Source: Solirubrobacteraceae bacterium | GTDB taxonomy: Bacteria > Actinomycetota > Thermoleophilia > Solirubrobacterales > Solirubrobacteraceae | Length of the DNA stretch: 51,718 bases | Assembly (NCBI GenBank): GCA_031177685.1 | Contig: JAPSGI010000019.1 | Location: 1 to 51,718, forward strand | Direction of reading: 5' to 3' | Part shown: in pieces, positions 1-40,235 of the stretch | How positions within the stretch are numbered: the stretch's first letter is position 1 | Layout of the letters: each line of letters starts with the position of its first letter | Notes under the pieces: generated by a model | What the model saw: the letters and a program-made list of their open reading frames with translations, nothing else | The model's database searches: none | What the model was told of the DNA's origin: nothing | Program-made: the position numbers and the translations under genes

Positions 1-780
1 CGCAACCTGCGCCGGCCGCGGACCGATCTGCGCGGGTTCGTGGCGGGGACCGCCGCGGCCGCGGCGGCCGTCGCGCCCGTCGCCGGGCAGCTGGGCGGCC
101 TGCTCGACGGGGCGGCGGTCACCCTGGAGGCCGTCTCCTCCACCGAGGGGGCGCTGGGCGAGACGATCGACGAGGCGCCCGCCACCGCGGCGGTCACCGC
201 GCGCGCCGCGCGGCGGGTGCGGCCGGTGCTGGCCGACGGCGCCGCGCTGCTGCGCGACCTGCGCCCGGCCACCGCGATCCTCCCGCGCGCGTCGCGGCGG
301 CTCGCGCTGGCGGTGGAGGCCGGCACGCCCGTCCTGCGGCGGGCGACCGCGCTGGGGGACCGCCTCGGCGACACGCTCGCCGCCCTGGAGGCGCTGTTCC
401 GCGACCCGGCGACCGAGGGCTCCGTGCGCAAGCTCGCGGCGGTCGTGGCGTCGCTGGAGCCCACGCTGCGCCACGTCAACCCGCTGCAGGTGCGCTGCAA
501 CTACCTGGGCGTATGGACGCGCAACGCGTCCTCGGCGATCAGCGAGGGCGACGCCAACGGGACGTGGTTCCGCTTCATCGCGGTGGTGGGGCTCGACGAG
601 ATGGTGCAGCGCCCCGACCCCGCGCCGGGTCTGCACGTCAACCCGTACCCGCAGACCGGTCAGAACGGCGAGTGCGAGGCGGGCAACGAGACGTGGGTAC
701 CGGGGCAGCAGATCGGCCCCGCGCCCGGGCGCCAGCCGGGCTTCACGGAGGCGACGTCGCCGGAGACGGTGATCCCGTGA
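1..780 (+). CDS. MCE (MlaD) family protein, 5'-truncated by window edge
   Basis: The frame is open from the first base, so the start, the membrane anchor and the MCE domain lie upstream of the window. The visible part is the Ala/Arg/Leu-rich helical region typical of the C-terminal half of actinobacterial Mce proteins, with repeated 'LRPA' and 'RRL' helices. It is followed by a Cys-containing tail (CNYLGVW, then a second Cys near the end). The tail resembles that of the Mce protein at 2249-3523. Known of the family: Mce proteins are periplasmic/cell-wall substrate-binding subunits of ABC-type lipid importers. The stop TGA overlaps the GTG start of the next Mce gene (GTGA), so the two are translationally coupled. 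A GTG at 40 is not treated as the start, because coding continues 5' of it. Confidence 0.85.
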   Translation, partial: RNLRRPRTDLRGFVAGTAAAAAAVAPVAGQLGGLLDGAAVTLEAVSSTEGALGETIDEAPATAAVTARAARRVRPVLADGAALLRDLRPATAILPRASRRLALAVEAGTPVLRRATALGDRLGDTLAALEALFRDPATEGSVRKLAAVVASLEPTLRHVNPLQVRCNYLGVWTRNASSAISEGDANGTWFRFIAVVGLDEMVQRPDPAPGLHVNPYPQTGQNGECEAGNETWVPGQQIGPAPGRQPGFTEATSPETVIP

Positions 781-33145: not shown

Positions 33146-34735
33146 TTACAACCGCGCCTCGGCCCGAGCCTGCGTCCGCATCTCGGACAGGATCCGCTCG
33201 AGCCGTGGCTCCAGCTCGCGGTCCACGTGAACCATGGCGGCGGCGACGGCCGGATGCACGGACGCGATCTGGGCTTGCATCTCGTGGGCGACCGCGCGGT
33301 ACGTCGGGTGCCCCTCGCGCCCCGAGCGCAGCTCGATCAGCTGCATCGCCTCGCGGGCGTTGAGCTCGAGCACGTAGCGGATGCGGTAGCCGAGGCACAG
33401 CGCGTAGGGCGCGGAGCGCTCCAGCCCGGCGGCCACGAGGCGCTCGTACTCCTCGCGCGAGCGTTCCAGCGCGCGGCGGTAGGCGTCGCCCTGGCCGGCC
33501 GCGTCGATCTCCTCGGGGATCCCGGCGCCGAGGTCGGGGGACAGCGACTGCCACTGGCAGGTCAGCATCCGGTGGCGCTGCAGGTCGCGGAAGGCGCCGT
33601 AGTCGGAGACGATCTCGAAGCGGTAGCGCAGCGTCTCCAGGCCGCGGCCGGGCCGGTAGCGGCGGTTGCGCCGCTCGCCCACCAGGTCGGCGAACAGCGC
33701 CCCCTGCTGCTCGGGCGACAGGGACGCCACGGCGATCCGCGCCTGCTCCTCGGACACCGCCGATGACTCGAACAGCAGCGCGGCCAGCAGGCGCTCCATG
33801 TCGCCGTCGACCTCCAGCAGCCGGACGGACGGGCCGCCGTCTGCCGCCGCCGGCCGGTCGAGTCCCAGGCGCCCGACCCAGTCGCGCGTCGCCTGCTCGC
33901 GGCGCTCGAGGTATTCGATCCACTCGCCGCCGCGGTCGGGGCGCTCCACGCGCGCGACGAAGCTCGGCATGACCGCCTTGACCTCGTCGAGGATCATCCG
34001 GCCGTACGCCCGCGCCTCGGGCAGCGGGTGCGCGAGCAGGTGCAGGACCAGCTGCTCGTAGGTCTGGCCGGTGGCGAAGATCCCCATGTGGGAGAGAGAG
34101 GACGCCGGGAGCAGGCCGCGGAGGAGATCGAACGCCTTGGCCTTGATCGCCCGCGCGTGCGCGGCCTCGGGCTCGCCCGCGGCGCACGGAAAGCGCTGGT
34201 CCGCCCAGGCGACGACGCGCGGCAGGGCGGCGGAGTACGCGGAAAACAGGGCGTCCATCGCCGCCACGTACGGCGGCCCCAGCTCCTGGTCGCGGTAGTA
34301 GCGGTAGCCGCCGCCCGGCATCGGCGCGTCGTAGGCGATGTAGCGGGTGGACTGCTCGAGGTAGGCGCCCAGCCGCGGGCGCTGGAGGACCTTGGTGAGG
34401 ATGTTGGACACCCACTCGCAGGCCACGTGCGCCCCACCCAGCTGCGCGACGGAGTCGTCGCCGTAGCCCAGGAAGATTCGCTCGTAGAGCTGGGCCGCGC
34501 GCTCGCCCTCGGCGCCGTCCCACACGCCGGCCGTCGCCTGCGCCACGTCGCCCGCGAACTCGTCGAGGAAGAGGCGGCGCAGCGTTCCCGGATAGCGTGA
34601 GTAGCGCGCGAACAGCGCACCCTTGACGGTCTCGGGCAGATTGACCAGCGCGAAGACCGGCCGGTCCAGGTTCGTGACGTGCGGCGCGAGCGCTGAGCGC
34701 TCCTCGTCCGTGAAGGTCTCGACCGGGTACTCCAA
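33146..34735 (-). CDS. Double-domain flavin-dependent thymidylate synthase (ThyX-like)
   Basis: At 529 residues this is about twice a normal ThyX (220-250). Both halves show ThyX-like features. The N-terminal half has YGDDSVAQLGG (about 91-101) and QRPRLGAYLEQSTRYI (motif at residues 119-132). The C-terminal half has the QRHRMLTCQWQS motif (387-400), then ELNAREAMQLIELRSGREGHPTYR. The ThyX signature RHRxxSxxxxSxRY is split: the first half keeps the S-x-R-Y end, the second keeps RHR. The normal reaction is dUMP to dTMP using FAD, NADPH and methylene-tetrahydrofolate. TTG 34735 is the only plausible start at the conserved N terminus (MEYPVETFTDEERSAL); no ATG or GTG is available there. It is divergent from the OsmC gene, 33 bp away. 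Confidence 0.85.
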   Translation of the reverse strand: MEYPVETFTDEERSALAPHVTNLDRPVFALVNLPETVKGALFARYSRYPGTLRRLFLDEFAGDVAQATAGVWDGAEGERAAQLYERIFLGYGDDSVAQLGGAHVACEWVSNILTKVLQRPRLGAYLEQSTRYIAYDAPMPGGGYRYYRDQELGPPYVAAMDALFSAYSAALPRVVAWADQRFPCAAGEPEAAHARAIKAKAFDLLRGLLPASSLSHMGIFATGQTYEQLVLHLLAHPLPEARAYGRMILDEVKAVMPSFVARVERPDRGGEWIEYLERREQATRDWVGRLGLDRPAAADGGPSVRLLEVDGDMERLLAALLFESSAVSEEQARIAVASLSPEQQGALFADLVGERRNRRYRPGRGLETLRYRFEIVSDYGAFRDLQRHRMLTCQWQSLSPDLGAGIPEEIDAAGQGDAYRRALERSREEYERLVAAGLERSAPYALCLGYRIRYVLELNAREAMQLIELRSGREGHPTYRAVAHEMQAQIASVHPAVAAAMVHVDRELEPRLERILSEMRTQARAEARL

Positions 34736-34768: not shown

Positions 34769-35194
34769 ATGCCGACACGCACCGCGGACGCGGTCTGGAG
34801 CGGCCCGATGCCGGGGGGCGAGGGCACGATGAAGATGGCGAGCGGCGCCTGGGAAGGGCCGTACTCGTTCAGCTCGCGCTTCGAGGAAGGTCAGGGCACG
34901 AACCCCGAGGAGCTGATAGGCGCCGCCCACGCGGGCTGCTTCTCGATGGCCTTCGCCGGCAACCTCGGCCGCGCCGGACACGAGCCGCAGCGCGTGGAGA
35001 CCAACGCCCGCGTGCACATCGACAAGGACGGCGACGGCTTCACGATCACGCGCATCGAGCTCGCGACCACCGCGACGGTCCCCGGCATCGACGACGAGGA
35101 GTTCCAGCGCATCGCGCAGGCGTCGAAGGAGGGCTGCCCGGTCTCCCGGGCGCTGGCCGGCGTGGACATCCAGCTGGAGGCGAAGCTCGGCTAG
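34769..35194 (+). CDS. OsmC/Ohr family peroxiredoxin
   Basis: This 141-residue hydroperoxide reductase is of the OsmC type. The catalytic Cys pair is C57 in AAHAGCFSMA and C123 in EGCPVSRALAG, with the usual spacing and the TNPEELIGAAHAGC lead-in. It detoxifies organic hydroperoxides using low-molecular-weight thiols or lipoyl proteins. The strong Shine-Dalgarno gagaggag precedes ATG 34769. It is divergent from the thyX-type gene. Its TAG shares a CTAG with the TAG of nuoN coming from the other side, so nuo-operon transcription must end inside or beyond this gene or at the shared stop. Confidence 0.93.
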   Translation: MPTRTADAVWSGPMPGGEGTMKMASGAWEGPYSFSSRFEEGQGTNPEELIGAAHAGCFSMAFAGNLGRAGHEPQRVETNARVHIDKDGDGFTITRIELATTATVPGIDDEEFQRIAQASKEGCPVSRALAGVDIQLEAKLG

Positions 35195-36750
35195 AGCAGC
35201 CCGAGCGCCGACCCGGCGTCCCGCGCCAGGTCGAAGAGCGGCGACGGGAGGATGCCGAAGAACAGCGTCGCCGCGCCGAACAGGACCGCGACGGCGGTAG
35301 CCTCCGCTTGAGAGACGGGCCGGTCGGGACCCGCATCCTGACCGGCGCCGTCTTCGGGGTCCGCAGCGGCGTCCAGCTCAGGCGAGCCACCCGCGATCGC
35401 CGGGACCGGCTCGCGCGCGGCCGGGACGGGGACGTCGCTCAGCCACATCGCCGCGACGACGCGCAGGTAGTAGTACAGCGAGAGCATCGACCCGACCACG
35501 ATGGCCACGCCGAGCCAGGTGTAGCCGCCGTCCACCGTGGCGCCGATCAGCGTGAACTTGCCGATGAAGCCGGCGGTCGCCGGGATCCCGGCCAGCGACA
35601 GCATGGCCAGCGTCATCGGCCAGGCCAGCGCCGGGCGCGAGGCGCCCAGCCCGGCGAGCGAGCGGATGTCGTCGCCGAACGGCGTCTCGCGCTCGCGCGC
35701 GACGATCACCGCGAACGCGGCCAGGTTCATCACCAGGTAGACGGCGAGGTAGAACGCCAGCGCCTCCACGCCCTCGCGGTCGGCCACCACGACGGCGGCC
35801 AGCATGTAGCCGGCCTGCGCGATGCTCGACCAGGCCAGCAGGCGCTTGAGCGACGTCTGGGTCAGCGCGCCGACGTTGCCCACCACGATCGACGCCACCG
35901 CGACGGCCGCCAGCAGCGGCGACCAGTTCGTGGCCGCGTCGATCAGAGCCACGTCGAACAGCCGCACGAAGGCGCCGAAGGCCGCCGCCTTGGTCGCCAC
36001 GGCCATGAAGGCGGTCACCGGCGTGGGCGCTCCCTCGTACACGTCCGGCGTCCACTGGTGGAAGGGCGCCGCCGAGACCTTGAAGCAGAACCCGACGACG
36101 ATCAGCCCGATGCCGGTCAGCGTCAGCGGATCGTCGATCAGCCCGGCCTGGGAGGACAGTGCCGTCGCGATCTGCTCGAACCCGGTCGCGCCCGTGGCCC
36201 CGTAGATCATCGCCAGGCCGTAGAGCAGCGTCGCCGACCCCACGGAACCCACGATCAGGTACTTCAGCCCCGACTCCAGCGACTTCGACCGCCGCAGGTT
36301 CGTCGCGCACATCACGTAGAGCGGGATCGACAGCAGCTCGAAGCCCAGGAAGACGACCACGAGGTTCTGGGCCGAAGCCAGGACCGTCATCCCCAGGACG
36401 GACGAGATCAGCAGCGCGTGCCACTCCCCGTGGCCGGACTCCTCGGGCGAGGAGTCGCGCAGCGCCAGCACGACGGCCGCGATCGCCCCGGCGCAGAACA
36501 GCAGGTTGAGGAACATCGCCAGGTCGTCCACGGCGAGGGCGCGGGAAACGATCGCCTTGTCCTCGCCCCACTGCCAGATCGACAGCCCGGCGGTGGCGCC
36601 CAGCGTCAGGAGCGTCAGCAGCGGGACGCCGTAGCGGCGCAGCCACGCCCCGCGGAAGAGACCGGCGGCGAGCACGACGATCCCGCCGGCCGTCAGCGCG
36701 ACGATCGGGGAGAGGCCGGCCCAGTCGATGTGCGGCGCTTCGGGCGTCAT
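35191..36750 (-). CDS. nuoN: NADH-quinone oxidoreductase subunit N
   Basis: This 519-residue antiporter-like membrane subunit of Complex I has about fourteen helices. Typical segments are FLGFELLSIPLYVMCA, SGLKYLIVGSVGSATLLYG, FKVSAAPFHQWTPDVYEGAPTPVTAFM with the pump-channel Lys, and SLKRLLAWSSIAQAGYML. An unusual acidic/Pro/Ala-rich loop of about 45 residues (438-482) separates the last two helices. ATG 36750 overlaps the nuoM stop (ATGA). It is the last gene of the nuo operon; its TAG overlaps that of the convergent osmC gene. Confidence 0.93.
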   Translation of the reverse strand: MTPEAPHIDWAGLSPIVALTAGGIVVLAAGLFRGAWLRRYGVPLLTLLTLGATAGLSIWQWGEDKAIVSRALAVDDLAMFLNLLFCAGAIAAVVLALRDSSPEESGHGEWHALLISSVLGMTVLASAQNLVVVFLGFELLSIPLYVMCATNLRRSKSLESGLKYLIVGSVGSATLLYGLAMIYGATGATGFEQIATALSSQAGLIDDPLTLTGIGLIVVGFCFKVSAAPFHQWTPDVYEGAPTPVTAFMAVATKAAAFGAFVRLFDVALIDAATNWSPLLAAVAVASIVVGNVGALTQTSLKRLLAWSSIAQAGYMLAAVVVADREGVEALAFYLAVYLVMNLAAFAVIVARERETPFGDDIRSLAGLGASRPALAWPMTLAMLSLAGIPATAGFIGKFTLIGATVDGGYTWLGVAIVVGSMLSLYYYLRVVAAMWLSDVPVPAAREPVPAIAGGSPELDAAADPEDGAGQDAGPDRPVSQAEATAVAVLFGAATLFFGILPSPLFDLARDAGSALGLL

Positions 36751-38216
36751 CGCTGCACCGCCTGCGCCGTGCGCACGCTCGCGTCGATCGACTTCTCCGA
36801 GCGCGCCAGCGGCAGCTGCGGATAGAGGGCGAGCGCCAGCACGCACACCACGAGCGGCACGATCGCCACGCCCTCGCCGAGCGACAGCTCGCGCGACTCG
36901 GCGCGCGACCCCGCCCGGTTGTGCATCGTCGCGATGAAGGCGCGCAGCATGTACACCGAGGCCAGCACGACGCCCGTCGAGGCCACGATCGCGATCGCCA
37001 GCTTGGACTCGAAGACCCCGAGCAGGATGTAGAACTCGCCCACGAAGTTGGCGAAGCCCGGCATGGCAAGGTTGGCCAGCGCCGCGATCAGGAACGTCGC
37101 CGCCAGGAGGGGCGCGCGCGCCGCCATCCCGCCCATGTCGCGGATGTCCTCCGACCCGCCGGCGCGGGCGGCCAGCGCGCCCACGACGAAGAACAGCGGC
37201 ACGACGACCAGCGCGTGGTTGACCATCTGCAGCAGCGCCCCCTGCGCTCCCTCGGGCCGCAGCGCGAAGATCCCCAGCACGATGAACCCGAGCTGCGCCA
37301 TCGAGGAGAAGCCGAGGATCAGGCGCAGGTCGGTCTGAGTGAACGCCATCACCGACCCGTAGAGGATCGCCGCGACCGCGAGCAGCAGCATCAGCTCCTG
37401 GAAGTGCACGGAGGCGTCGGGGTAGAGCGGCAGCACCACGCGCAGAAAGCCGTACGCCGCGACCTTGGACAGCACGGCCGAGAACACGGCCAGCACCGGC
37501 AGCGGCATCGCGCGGTACCCGTCGGGCATCCAGCCGTGCACGGGGAACAGAGGCATCTTGACCAGGAAGGCCAGCGCGAAGCACAGGAAGATCCACTGCT
37601 GCGTGCCCTCGGCGAGCTGGACCTGCGCCAGGTCGGAGAGCACGAAGGTCAGCTCGCCGCCGCCCTCCGCCGCGATCACCCCGGTGGCGATCGCGCCGGC
37701 CAGCATGAACAGCGACCCGACCAGCGTGTAGATCACGAGCTTGGTCGTCGCGCGCACGCGCTCGCCGCGACCCCACGCCCCGATCAGGAAGTAGAACGGG
37801 ATCAGCATCAGGTCGAAGAAGGCGACGAACAGCGCCAGGTCCTGCGCCAGGAACGCGCCCAGCACGGCGCTCTCGGCCAGGGCGAACATGAAGAAGAACA
37901 GGCGCGGGCGCTCCCACTCGCGCAGGTTGGCGTGCAGCAGCGCCGCCGCGAACAGCAGCGCGGTGACCAGGACCAGGAAGAGATTCAGCCCGTCCAGCCC
38001 GAGCTTGTAGTGGATGCCCAGCTCGGCGATCCAGGTCTCGTCGGTGACCCACTGCAGGCCCTCCGCGCCGCGGTCGAACGACGCCACGTAGCCGATCGCC
38101 AGCACCAGCGTGATGACCGAACCGGCGAGCACGACGCGCGGCGCCCAGCGCGCCGGCCACAGCACGGCCACCAGGCCGGAGACCGCGGGCAGCCAGATGA
38201 GCAGGGAGAGGGGCAT
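36747..38216 (-). CDS. nuoM: NADH-quinone oxidoreductase subunit M
   Basis: This 489-residue proton-pumping membrane subunit has about fourteen helices. Family landmarks are VTDETWIAELGIHYKLGLDG, FALAESAVLGAFLAQDLALF, FLVKMPLFPVHGWMPDGYRAMP and GSVMAFTQTDLRLILGFSSMAQLGFI. The GMAARAPLLAATFLIAAL stretch and the Lys/His residues that line the proton channel are in the normal places. ATG 38216 starts three bases after the nuoL stop, and the TGA overlaps the nuoN ATG. It works in the membrane arm with NuoL and NuoN, converting quinone reduction into proton transfer. Confidence 0.95.
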   Translation of the reverse strand: MPLSLLIWLPAVSGLVAVLWPARWAPRVVLAGSVITLVLAIGYVASFDRGAEGLQWVTDETWIAELGIHYKLGLDGLNLFLVLVTALLFAAALLHANLREWERPRLFFFMFALAESAVLGAFLAQDLALFVAFFDLMLIPFYFLIGAWGRGERVRATTKLVIYTLVGSLFMLAGAIATGVIAAEGGGELTFVLSDLAQVQLAEGTQQWIFLCFALAFLVKMPLFPVHGWMPDGYRAMPLPVLAVFSAVLSKVAAYGFLRVVLPLYPDASVHFQELMLLLAVAAILYGSVMAFTQTDLRLILGFSSMAQLGFIVLGIFALRPEGAQGALLQMVNHALVVVPLFFVVGALAARAGGSEDIRDMGGMAARAPLLAATFLIAALANLAMPGFANFVGEFYILLGVFESKLAIAIVASTGVVLASVYMLRAFIATMHNRAGSRAESRELSLGEGVAIVPLVVCVLALALYPQLPLARSEKSIDASVRTAQAVQR

Positions 38217-38219
38217 CGT

Positions 38220-40235
38220 CTAGGCGCTCACGATCAGGAAGTAGAGGGCCACGCCGACCACGCCGAGCACCAGCAGTCCGGCGTACACGCGCAGGTAGCC
38301 GTCCTGGATCGCGCGCACGAACGCCGAGCCGCCGCGCACGGCACCCGTCGGCCCGCCGACCAGCGCGCCGTCGATCACCCAGCGCTCGAAGCGCTCGCGG
38401 AAGAAGCCGCCGACCGCCCGGGACGGCCGCACGACCGTGCGGTCGTAGAGCTCGTCGAACCACCACTTGTTGAAGGACAGCTCGTAGAGCGGCCGCAGGC
38501 CGGACCGGATGCGCGCGGGCAGCTCGGGCCGCCGCACCCACAAGAACCACGCGAGGGCGATGCCGGCCAGCGCCAGGACCGTCCCCAGCACGAGCCCGAA
38601 CGCGATCAGCCCGTCGGAGGGCTCGTGGTGCGCGAACTCCGAGCCCGCGAACGTCGGCTCCAGGAAGCTGTCGATCACGTGCGTGACGTGGGGGATCTGC
38701 AGCACGCCCAGCACGGTCGCGCCCACGGCCAGGATCGCCATCGCGGTCTTCATGGGCCACTCGCGCTCGGCGATGAAGTGTCCCGGGCCGGGGAAGCCGA
38801 CCTCGGTGTCCTCCTCCTCGCCGGTCATCGGGTTCACGGGCGTCTCCGCGTGGTGCAGGTGACCGCCCTCCAGCTCGCGCGCCTCGGGCACGGAATCGCC
38901 CAGGAAGGCGCGGAAGATCATTCGGAACGTGTAGACGGCGGTCAGGAAGGCCGAGACGTAGCCGACGGCGTAGAGGATCCAGTGCCAGCCGCCGCGGTCG
39001 CCCACCAGCAGCAGGATCTCGTCCTTGGAGAAGAAGCCGGAGAACGGCGGCACGCCGGCCAGCGCCAGGCCCCCGACCACGAAGCAGCCGAAGGTGAACG
39101 GCATGGAGCGGCGGAAGCCGCCCATGCGGTCCAGCGACTGGATCCCCGCCATGGCGGCGATCACCGAGCCGGCGGCCATGAACAGCAGCGCCTTGAAGAA
39201 GGCGTGCGTCATCAGGTGGAACAGGCCGGCCGCGTACGCGCCCGCCGAGACGCCCATGATCATGTAGCCGATCTGCGACATCGTCGAGTAGGCGATGACG
39301 CGCTTGAGGTCGGTCTGCGTCAAGGCGATCGTGGCGGCCACGAACAGCGTCGCGCAGCCGAGGATCGCGCCCACGTCGGCCGCGGCGGGAGCCTGCTCGA
39401 ACAGCGGGTGCATGCGCGCGATCAAGTAGACGCCCGCGGTCACCATCGTGGCGGCGTGGATCAGCGCGCTCACCGGCGTGGGGCCCTCCATCGCGTCGGG
39501 CAGCCAGGTGTGCAGCGGGATCTGGGCCGACTTGGCGACCGCACCGACCAGCAGCAGGATGCAGCCGGCCACCAGGTCGCCGTCGTTGTGGGCGAACTCG
39601 TCGGGGACCTTCTCGAAGGCGGCCACGAAGTCCAGCGTCCCGACGTGCTTGAAGACGAAGTACGTCCCCAGGACGAGCCCCACGTCGCCGATCACGTTCA
39701 TCACGAACGCCTTGATGCCCGCGCGGGTGGCGGTGCGCCGGCGATACCAGAACGAGATCAAAAAGTAGGAGGCGGCGCCGACGAAGGCCCAGCCCACGAT
39801 GAGGAAGAAGAAGTTGCCCGCCAGGACGAGCAGCAGCATCGAGAAGACGAAGAAGTTCAGGTACGCGAAGAAGCGCGCGTACCCGCGGTCCTCCCACATG
39901 TAGATGACCGAGTAGAGGTGGATCAGGGCGCTGACGCCGCTGACCACGAGGATCATGAAGACCGACAGCGGGTCGACGAGGATCGTGAGGTTGGCGTCCA
40001 CGCCCAGCGTGTTCGCGTACTCGTAGGCCGTCGAGACGACGGTCTTGGCCTCCTCGCCCTCGCGGCCCTCCAGCGACAGCAGCGCCCCCACGGCGCAGGC
40101 GAACGACGCAAACACCGCGCCGGTCCCGATCCAGCCGGGCAGCTTGCCGGGCAGCGCGCGCCAGCCGAGCGCGACGGCCACCGTCCCGGCGAGCGGGAAC
40201 GCGAGCACCAGCCAGCCCCAGGTCGTGGGCGACAT
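38220..40235 (-). CDS. nuoL: NADH-quinone oxidoreductase subunit L
   Basis: This 671-residue distal membrane subunit is longer than E. coli NuoL (613). It contains NuoL landmarks such as FVGAASYFLISFWYRR, GAVAKSAQIPLHTWLPDAM (pump Lys at about 235), PTPVSALIHAATMVTAGVYLIAR, MTHAFFKALLFMAAGSVI and FSGFFSKDEIL. A hydrophilic loop (about 447-493: VPEARELEGGHLHHAETP and an acidic stretch) interrupts the helical order before the C-terminal part that carries the lateral helix. ATG 40235 directly follows the nuoK stop. It is in the middle of the nuo operon, three bases ahead of nuoM. Confidence 0.95.
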   Translation of the reverse strand: MSPTTWGWLVLAFPLAGTVAVALGWRALPGKLPGWIGTGAVFASFACAVGALLSLEGREGEEAKTVVSTAYEYANTLGVDANLTILVDPLSVFMILVVSGVSALIHLYSVIYMWEDRGYARFFAYLNFFVFSMLLLVLAGNFFFLIVGWAFVGAASYFLISFWYRRRTATRAGIKAFVMNVIGDVGLVLGTYFVFKHVGTLDFVAAFEKVPDEFAHNDGDLVAGCILLLVGAVAKSAQIPLHTWLPDAMEGPTPVSALIHAATMVTAGVYLIARMHPLFEQAPAAADVGAILGCATLFVAATIALTQTDLKRVIAYSTMSQIGYMIMGVSAGAYAAGLFHLMTHAFFKALLFMAAGSVIAAMAGIQSLDRMGGFRRSMPFTFGCFVVGGLALAGVPPFSGFFSKDEILLLVGDRGGWHWILYAVGYVSAFLTAVYTFRMIFRAFLGDSVPEARELEGGHLHHAETPVNPMTGEEEDTEVGFPGPGHFIAEREWPMKTAMAILAVGATVLGVLQIPHVTHVIDSFLEPTFAGSEFAHHEPSDGLIAFGLVLGTVLALAGIALAWFLWVRRPELPARIRSGLRPLYELSFNKWWFDELYDRTVVRPSRAVGGFFRERFERWVIDGALVGGPTGAVRGGSAFVRAIQDGYLRVYAGLLVLGVVGVALYFLIVSA

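What the first reader, a model, noticed from the sequence alone, without database searches (positions are those of the whole stretch)
33146..34735. Tandem ThyX with two complementary half-broken signature motifs
One 529-residue protein carries two ThyX-like halves. The canonical ThyX signature is R-H-R-x-x-S-x-N-E-x-S-x-R-Y. The first half (residues 119-132; 34340-34381) reads R-P-R-x-x-A-x-L-E-x-S-x-R-Y, losing His2, Ser6 and Asn8 but keeping E, S and R-Y. The second half (residues 387-400; 33536-33577) reads R-H-R-x-x-T-x-Q-W-x-S-x-S, keeping RHR and losing N-E and R-Y. ThyX active sites are built across subunit interfaces of a homotetramer. The two halves therefore look subfunctionalised, so that one composite active site per pseudo-dimer is complete: a natural single-chain heterodimer.
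Basis: partly seen in the sequence, partly recalled or inferred. Interest (0 to 1): 0.72.

Follow-up and report, generated by a model that had tools for sequence, protein, structure and literature searches.

The report
Tandem ThyX with a shared active site
This gene joins two copies of a DNA-building-block enzyme (flavin-dependent thymidylate synthase) in one protein, and each copy has kept only its own share of the working residues, so the two apparently have to act together to make the cell's thymidylate.

Summary
Window 33146-34735(-) encodes a 529-residue protein with two PF02511/ThyX domains, both above the curated cut-off. Only 19 residues are invariant in 108 tandem homologues down to 21% identity, and 10 of these are ThyX active-site equivalents (T. 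maritima numbering). Half 1 always keeps Glu86, Ser88, Arg90, Tyr91, Arg147 and the FAD-phosphate Ser. Half 2 always keeps Arg78, His79, Arg80 and Arg174. Half 1 never has His79, and half 2 never has the ExSxRY block. No model of the assembly could be made.

The genome has no ThyA, DHFR, thymidine kinase or second ThyX. Among 199 genomes of the class, 83 have the tandem gene, and none of those has full-length ThyA and one has a single-domain ThyX. All first halves group together in a tree, as do all second halves, indicating one old duplication.

Domain-duplicated ThyX is not new: a 2009 paper noted it in Chloroflexi as uncharacterised. The reciprocal partition of catalytic residues, its conservation and the sole-synthase context appear undescribed in the papers I could search. 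It is a new variant of a known enzyme.

The parts
33146..34735 (-). tandem (domain-duplicated) ThyX gene, 529 aa, TTG start
   Evidence: ORF; two PF02511 matches; full-length homologues at 64-77% identity in 58 Thermoleophilia loci
33860..34735 (-). half 1 (residues 1-292), the ThyX domain that supplies the dUMP-cradle residues
   Evidence: AF2 model pLDDT 81.6; VIA Z 11.6 to Mtb ThyX 3gwc; hhalign to canonical ThyX E 4.8e-6
33149..33859 (-). half 2 (residues 293-529), the ThyX domain that supplies the flavin-clamp residues
   Evidence: VIA Z 16 to 6j61/1o26 ThyX over residues 299-508; hhalign E 8.1e-10
34340..34381 (-). half-1 signature RPRLGAYLEQSTRY (residues 119-132): E127, S129, R131, Y132 kept, His lost
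   Evidence: E, S, R, Y 108/108; His position G/P/S/F, never H
33536..33577 (-). half-2 signature RHRMLTCQWQSLSP (residues 387-400): RHR kept, NExSxRY lost
   Evidence: R387, H388, R389 108/108; no aligned ExSxRY
34118..34120 (-). Arg206, equivalent of T. maritima Arg147 (half 1 only)
   Evidence: 108/108 in half 1; P/Q/S/M/A and others in half 2
34451..34453 (-). Ser95, equivalent of the FAD-phosphate Ser71 of Mtb ThyX (half 1); Arg364 in half 2
   Evidence: 108/108 Ser in half 1; Arg 105/108 in half 2
33326..33328 (-). Arg470, equivalent of T. maritima Arg174 / Mtb Arg199 (half 2)
   Evidence: 108/108
33353..33361 (-). NAR motif (residues 459-461), Arg461 = T. maritima Arg165 / Mtb Arg190
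   Evidence: Arg 105/108 in half 2; Gln 105/108 in half 1

Best explanation
It is the cell's thymidylate synthase: a ThyX whose gene duplicated and fused, after which the two copies divided one active site between them. Half 1 holds dUMP (Glu127, Ser129, Arg131, Tyr132 lid, Arg206, in the roles of T. maritima Glu86, Ser88, Arg90, Tyr91, Arg147). Half 2 holds the flavin and reaches over to the dUMP (Arg387-His388-Arg389 and Arg470, in the roles of the RHR motif and Arg174). Two chains would pair into a ThyX-like pseudo-tetramer with two complete sites (half-2 clamp plus half-1 cradle) and two permanently dead ones. Chemistry at the live sites would be ordinary ThyX chemistry: methylene-THF, FAD and NADPH convert dUMP to dTMP and release THF, so no DHFR is needed. 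Shown: the tandem architecture, the reciprocal residue sets, their conservation, one origin, and the lack of any other synthase. Inferred: catalytic activity, the quaternary structure, and the two live plus two dead sites.
For: Both halves are ThyX by sequence and by fold. In 108 homologues only 19 residues are invariant, and 10 are active-site equivalents split between the halves. PMC6514825 assigns RHR and Arg199 to subunit A and Ser105, Arg107 and Tyr108 to subunit C of one site. No ThyA, DHFR, TK or second ThyX in the genome. Class-wide replacement pattern: 83 tandem, 9 full ThyA, 90 single ThyX; tandem/ThyA overlap 0, tandem/single ThyX overlap 1. DHFR accompanies 9 of 9 full ThyA but only 1 of 83 tandem genomes, at 25.2 bits, just over the cut-off. 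Tree: half 1s one group (100/99), half 2s one group (93/94), so a single duplication.
Against: No activity data exist for any tandem ThyX that I found. Half 1 often keeps Arg78/Arg80/Arg174-like basic residues, so the loss is not fully symmetric. The third-subunit residues are mixed: the FAD-phosphate Ser is in half 1, while Arg165eq is in half 2 in actinobacteria but in half 1 in Bacillus and Paenibacillus. TIGR02170 scores below its cut-off (47.7 against 87.9). Two of 116 tandem genomes in the phylum also have ThyA.
Confidence: 0.82

Rival explanations
1. Only one half is catalytic, and the other is a structural or regulatory pseudo-subunit.
For: Half 2 scores better as ThyX and has the fuller FAD clamp.
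Against: Half 2 has no ExSxRY block or Arg147 equivalent in any of 108 sequences, and half 1 has no His79. Neither half alone carries a full set, yet the missing parts are invariant in the other half.
Confidence: 0.07
2. A ThyX-fold enzyme with another job (a different pyrimidine methyl or hydroxymethyl transferase, or a non-catalytic protein) rather than dTMP synthesis.
For: The ThyX fold hosts another activity, the UMP/dUMP methylase PolB (4p5a, 4p5b), which is among the fold matches. A crystal structure title reports a ThyX 'not required for thymidylate biosynthesis' in C. glutamicum (3ge9). The Bacillus copies lie on plasmids.
Against: It is the only candidate synthase in the genome. Strong mutual exclusion with ThyA and single ThyX (Fisher p about 1e-36 in the class, genomes treated as independent) and with DHFR.
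Confidence: 0.08
3. An annotation or assembly artefact joining two genes, or a decaying pseudogene.
For: GC-rich sequence with many overlapping ORFs.
Against: The same full-length architecture in 58 independent contigs, across the phylum, in Bacillota and Bacteroidota plasmids and in a Vibrio phage, with invariant motifs.
Confidence: 0.01

Closest known systems
Canonical flavin-dependent thymidylate synthase ThyX (T. maritima TM0449, M. tuberculosis ThyX; PF02511)
   Same: Same fold in both halves; same set of dUMP- and FAD-site residues when the two halves are taken together; active site expected across subunit interfaces; goes with absence of ThyA and DHFR.
   Different: Two domains in one chain; the RHR...ExSxRY signature is split between the domains; predicted two sites per tetramer-equivalent instead of four.
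Domain-duplicated ThyX of Chloroflexi, noted as uncharacterised in PMC3224940 (2009)
   Same: Same duplicated architecture by description, and in organisms with no other thymidylate synthase.
   Different: That paper mentions the duplication in passing, gives no residue analysis and does not name actinobacteria in that remark; I did not compare Chloroflexi sequences directly.
Long ThyX-like proteins of Bacillus/Paenibacillus plasmids, Vibrio phage BONAISHI and (by structure match) Microcystis phage LMM01
   Same: Bacillus, Paenibacillus and BONAISHI proteins show the same reciprocal residue split at about 21-23% identity; the LMM01 protein (491 aa) matches the whole model.
   Different: Bacillus and Paenibacillus carry one extra residue (RHNR in place of RHR) and keep the Arg165 equivalent in half 1.

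Membership tests
ThyX (PF02511) | Profile match above the curated cut-off | tested here: met
   Both halves above 24.8 bits: 60.9 and 42.4
ThyX (PF02511) | ThyX fold | tested here: met
   Half 2 Z 16; half 1 Z 11.6
ThyX (PF02511) | Signature RHRxxSxNExSxRY intact within one domain | tested here: not met
   Split: RHR in half 2, ExSxRY in half 1, in all 108 sequences
ThyX (PF02511) | Complete set of dUMP/FAD-site residues in the chain as a whole | tested here: met
   All present when the halves are pooled (roles from PMC6514825)
ThyX equivalog TIGR02170 | Score above the equivalog cut-off | tested here: not met
   47.7 bits against 87.9
ThyX (functional class) | Sole de novo thymidylate synthase, DHFR dispensable | tested here: met
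   genomic evidence only
ThyX (functional class) | FAD- and NADPH-dependent dTMP formation | not testable with these tools
   Needs a biochemical assay
ThyX (functional class) | Tetrameric assembly with sites at subunit interfaces | not testable with these tools
   Only single-chain prediction was available

The most novel reading that the evidence does not exclude
A widespread, undescribed class of thymidylate synthase in which an ancient gene fusion turned a four-site homotetramer into an obligate two-site pseudo-heterotetramer with two permanently dead sites, and which is the only route to dTMP in large parts of the Actinomycetota.
Probability: 0.6. Interest if true: 0.65.

Novelty: new variant of a known kind. 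Interest (0 to 1): 0.52.

Why it matters
It would be a natural case of an essential homo-oligomeric enzyme dividing its active site between fused paralogous domains. That gives a ready-made single-chain system for testing which ThyX subunit does what, since each residue can be changed once per live site, and whether ThyX sites cooperate. It also accounts for dTMP synthesis in many actinobacteria that lack ThyA, DHFR and ordinary ThyX, and it warns that automatic signature or equivalog rules (TIGR02170) under-score a probable real synthase.

Tried and rejected
PDB search with the single sequence found nothing; only the family profile reached ThyX, weakly. Direct hhalign of half 1 against half 2 gave no useful alignment (E 0.31), so the halves were linked through canonical ThyX instead. 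An apparent ESLRY after an earlier RHR in half 2 of seven homologues (RRHRPGRGxESLRY) was considered as a hidden intact signature and rejected: by the profile alignment to T. maritima it lies at His53-Glu58, about 28 residues before the true RHR, and its Ser is not conserved. Weak PF00303 hits in two tandem genomes of the class (G089, G096) and many others in the phylum are partial (about 27-87 bits) and were counted apart from full-length ThyA. The T. maritima Arg147 role is from my own knowledge; a paper search for it found none held. Deciding from sequence which half plays the third-subunit role failed because the Ser and Arg point to different halves. Paper searches for tandem, fused or duplicated ThyX found only the 2009 remark; subscription journals are mostly not held.

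Full report
What is there. The ORF at 33146-34735 on the minus strand encodes 529 residues from a TTG start. The start is supported by homologues that have Met at or next to the same position. Pfam finds Thy1 (PF02511) twice, and a whole-genome search scores the halves at 60.9 and 42.4 bits against a cut-off of 24.8. Half 2, predicted within the full chain (pLDDT 85.7, pTM 0.86), matches T. thermophilus and T. maritima ThyX at Z 16 over residues 299-508. Half 1, folded alone (pLDDT 81.6), matches M. tuberculosis ThyX at Z 11.6 and T. maritima ThyX at about Z 8-9, well above unrelated folds at Z 4. Both halves are therefore ThyX domains.

Residue partition. Each half was aligned by profile to canonical ThyX. 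The roles were taken from PMC6514825: in Mtb ThyX, FAD of subunit A is held by RHR of subunit A and by Ser71 and Arg190 of subunit B, and the stacked dUMP is held by Arg95 and Arg199 of A and by Ser105 and Arg107 of C, with Tyr108 of C as lid. The spacing of Mtb Arg190 to Arg199, T. maritima Arg165 to Arg174 and window Arg461 to Arg470 is nine in all three cases, which supports the mapping. In 108 tandem homologues (55 from the class, the rest from the phylum, plasmids, a Vibrio phage and one viral contig; identity to the window down to 21%) only 19 residues are invariant. Ten of them are active-site equivalents: in half 1 Ser95, Glu127, Ser129, Arg131, Tyr132 and Arg206, in half 2 Arg387, His388, Arg389 and Arg470 (hypergeometric p about 5e-10 against 25 predefined positions). 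His79 is absent from half 1 in all 108, and the aligned ExSxRY block is absent from half 2 in all 108. Half 1 retains several basic residues (Arg80eq 105/108, Arg78eq 66/108, R, H or K at Arg174eq in 105/108), so the loss is sharper in half 2 than in half 1.

One old event. A tree of 27 first halves, 27 second halves and six single-domain ThyX puts all first halves on one branch (100/99) and all second halves on another (93/94), with partly matching sub-groups in the two. Bacillus and Paenibacillus plasmid copies, the phage copy and a Parabacteroides plasmid copy fall in the same two groups. Very long branches (BONAISHI, one single-domain ThyX) make the deep placement uncertain, and the bootstrap had not settled.

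Function from genomic context. The genome (3.15 Mb, 96.6% complete) has no ThyA, no DHFR, no thymidine kinase and no other ThyX. Across 199 genomes of the class, 83 have the tandem gene, 9 have full-length ThyA and 90 have single ThyX; tandem and ThyA never co-occur, and tandem and single ThyX co-occur once (Fisher p about 1e-36, treating genomes as independent, which overstates it because of shared ancestry). Within the window's own family, some genera have the tandem form and others the single form. DHFR is present in all nine full-ThyA genomes, next to thyA, and in one of 83 tandem genomes as a match barely over the cut-off. In the phylum draw of 396 genomes, 116 carry the tandem gene and 51 full ThyA, with two overlaps. 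This is the pattern of functional replacement among thymidylate synthases. It also fits ThyX chemistry, which yields tetrahydrofolate and so needs no DHFR (general knowledge).

Mechanism. In a 222-symmetric ThyX tetramer each site takes the RHR clamp from one subunit and the dUMP cradle from another. With half 2 supplying only a working clamp and half 1 only a working cradle, two of four pseudo-tetramer sites would be complete and two would lack both signatures. That step is inference from the residue sets and known ThyX geometry; neither assembly nor activity was shown. Which half plays the third-subunit (B) role is unresolved: Ser71eq lies in half 1 in all sequences, while Arg190eq lies in half 2 in actinobacteria and in half 1 in Bacillus and Paenibacillus.

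What is known. Domain-duplicated ThyX was mentioned in 2009 for Chloroflexi as 'not been characterized' (PMC3224940). NCBI names the plasmid copies 'FAD-dependent thymidylate synthase'. I found no paper describing the divided active site, but subscription journals are mostly not held in the library. The protein belongs to the ThyX family by profile and fold, fails the single-domain signature and the TIGR02170 cut-off, and is best called a new variant of a known kind.

Noticed in passing
L102 3791-5488 (Bacillus licheniformis plasmid), L103 3914-5500 (Paenibacillus urinalis plasmid): Divergent tandem ThyX with one extra residue inside the clamp motif (RHNR) and the Arg165 equivalent in half 1 instead of half 2, a swap relative to actinobacteria.
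   Followed up: partly
L105 1434-2876 (Vibrio phage BONAISHI); Microcystis phage LMM01 protein A0A7D4: Tandem-length ThyX proteins (480 and 491 aa) in large phages; BONAISHI keeps the same residue split at about 23% identity.
   Followed up: partly
L087, L088 (genomes G004, G034; also G016, G022): Genomes of the class with neither ThyX nor full ThyA carry a protein of about 210-230 aa that weakly matches PF00303 (41-47 bits), perhaps another thymidylate synthase type; similar weak matches are common in the phylum.
   Followed up: no
L003-L060, half 2, residues equivalent to window 358-373: Seven homologues read RRHRPGRGxESLRY about 28 residues before the true RHR, an accidental look-alike of the ThyX signature.
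   Followed up: yes
window 34769-35194(+) and 35191-40235(-): An OsmC-like gene lies divergently just upstream of the tandem thyX, and NADH dehydrogenase proton-antiporter subunits lie beyond it; no nucleotide- or folate-metabolism gene was seen among the neighbours tested.
   Followed up: partly
L085 (genome G089): The only genome of the class draw with both a tandem and a single-domain ThyX, plus a broken ThyA-like match; contamination or transfer possible.
   Followed up: no
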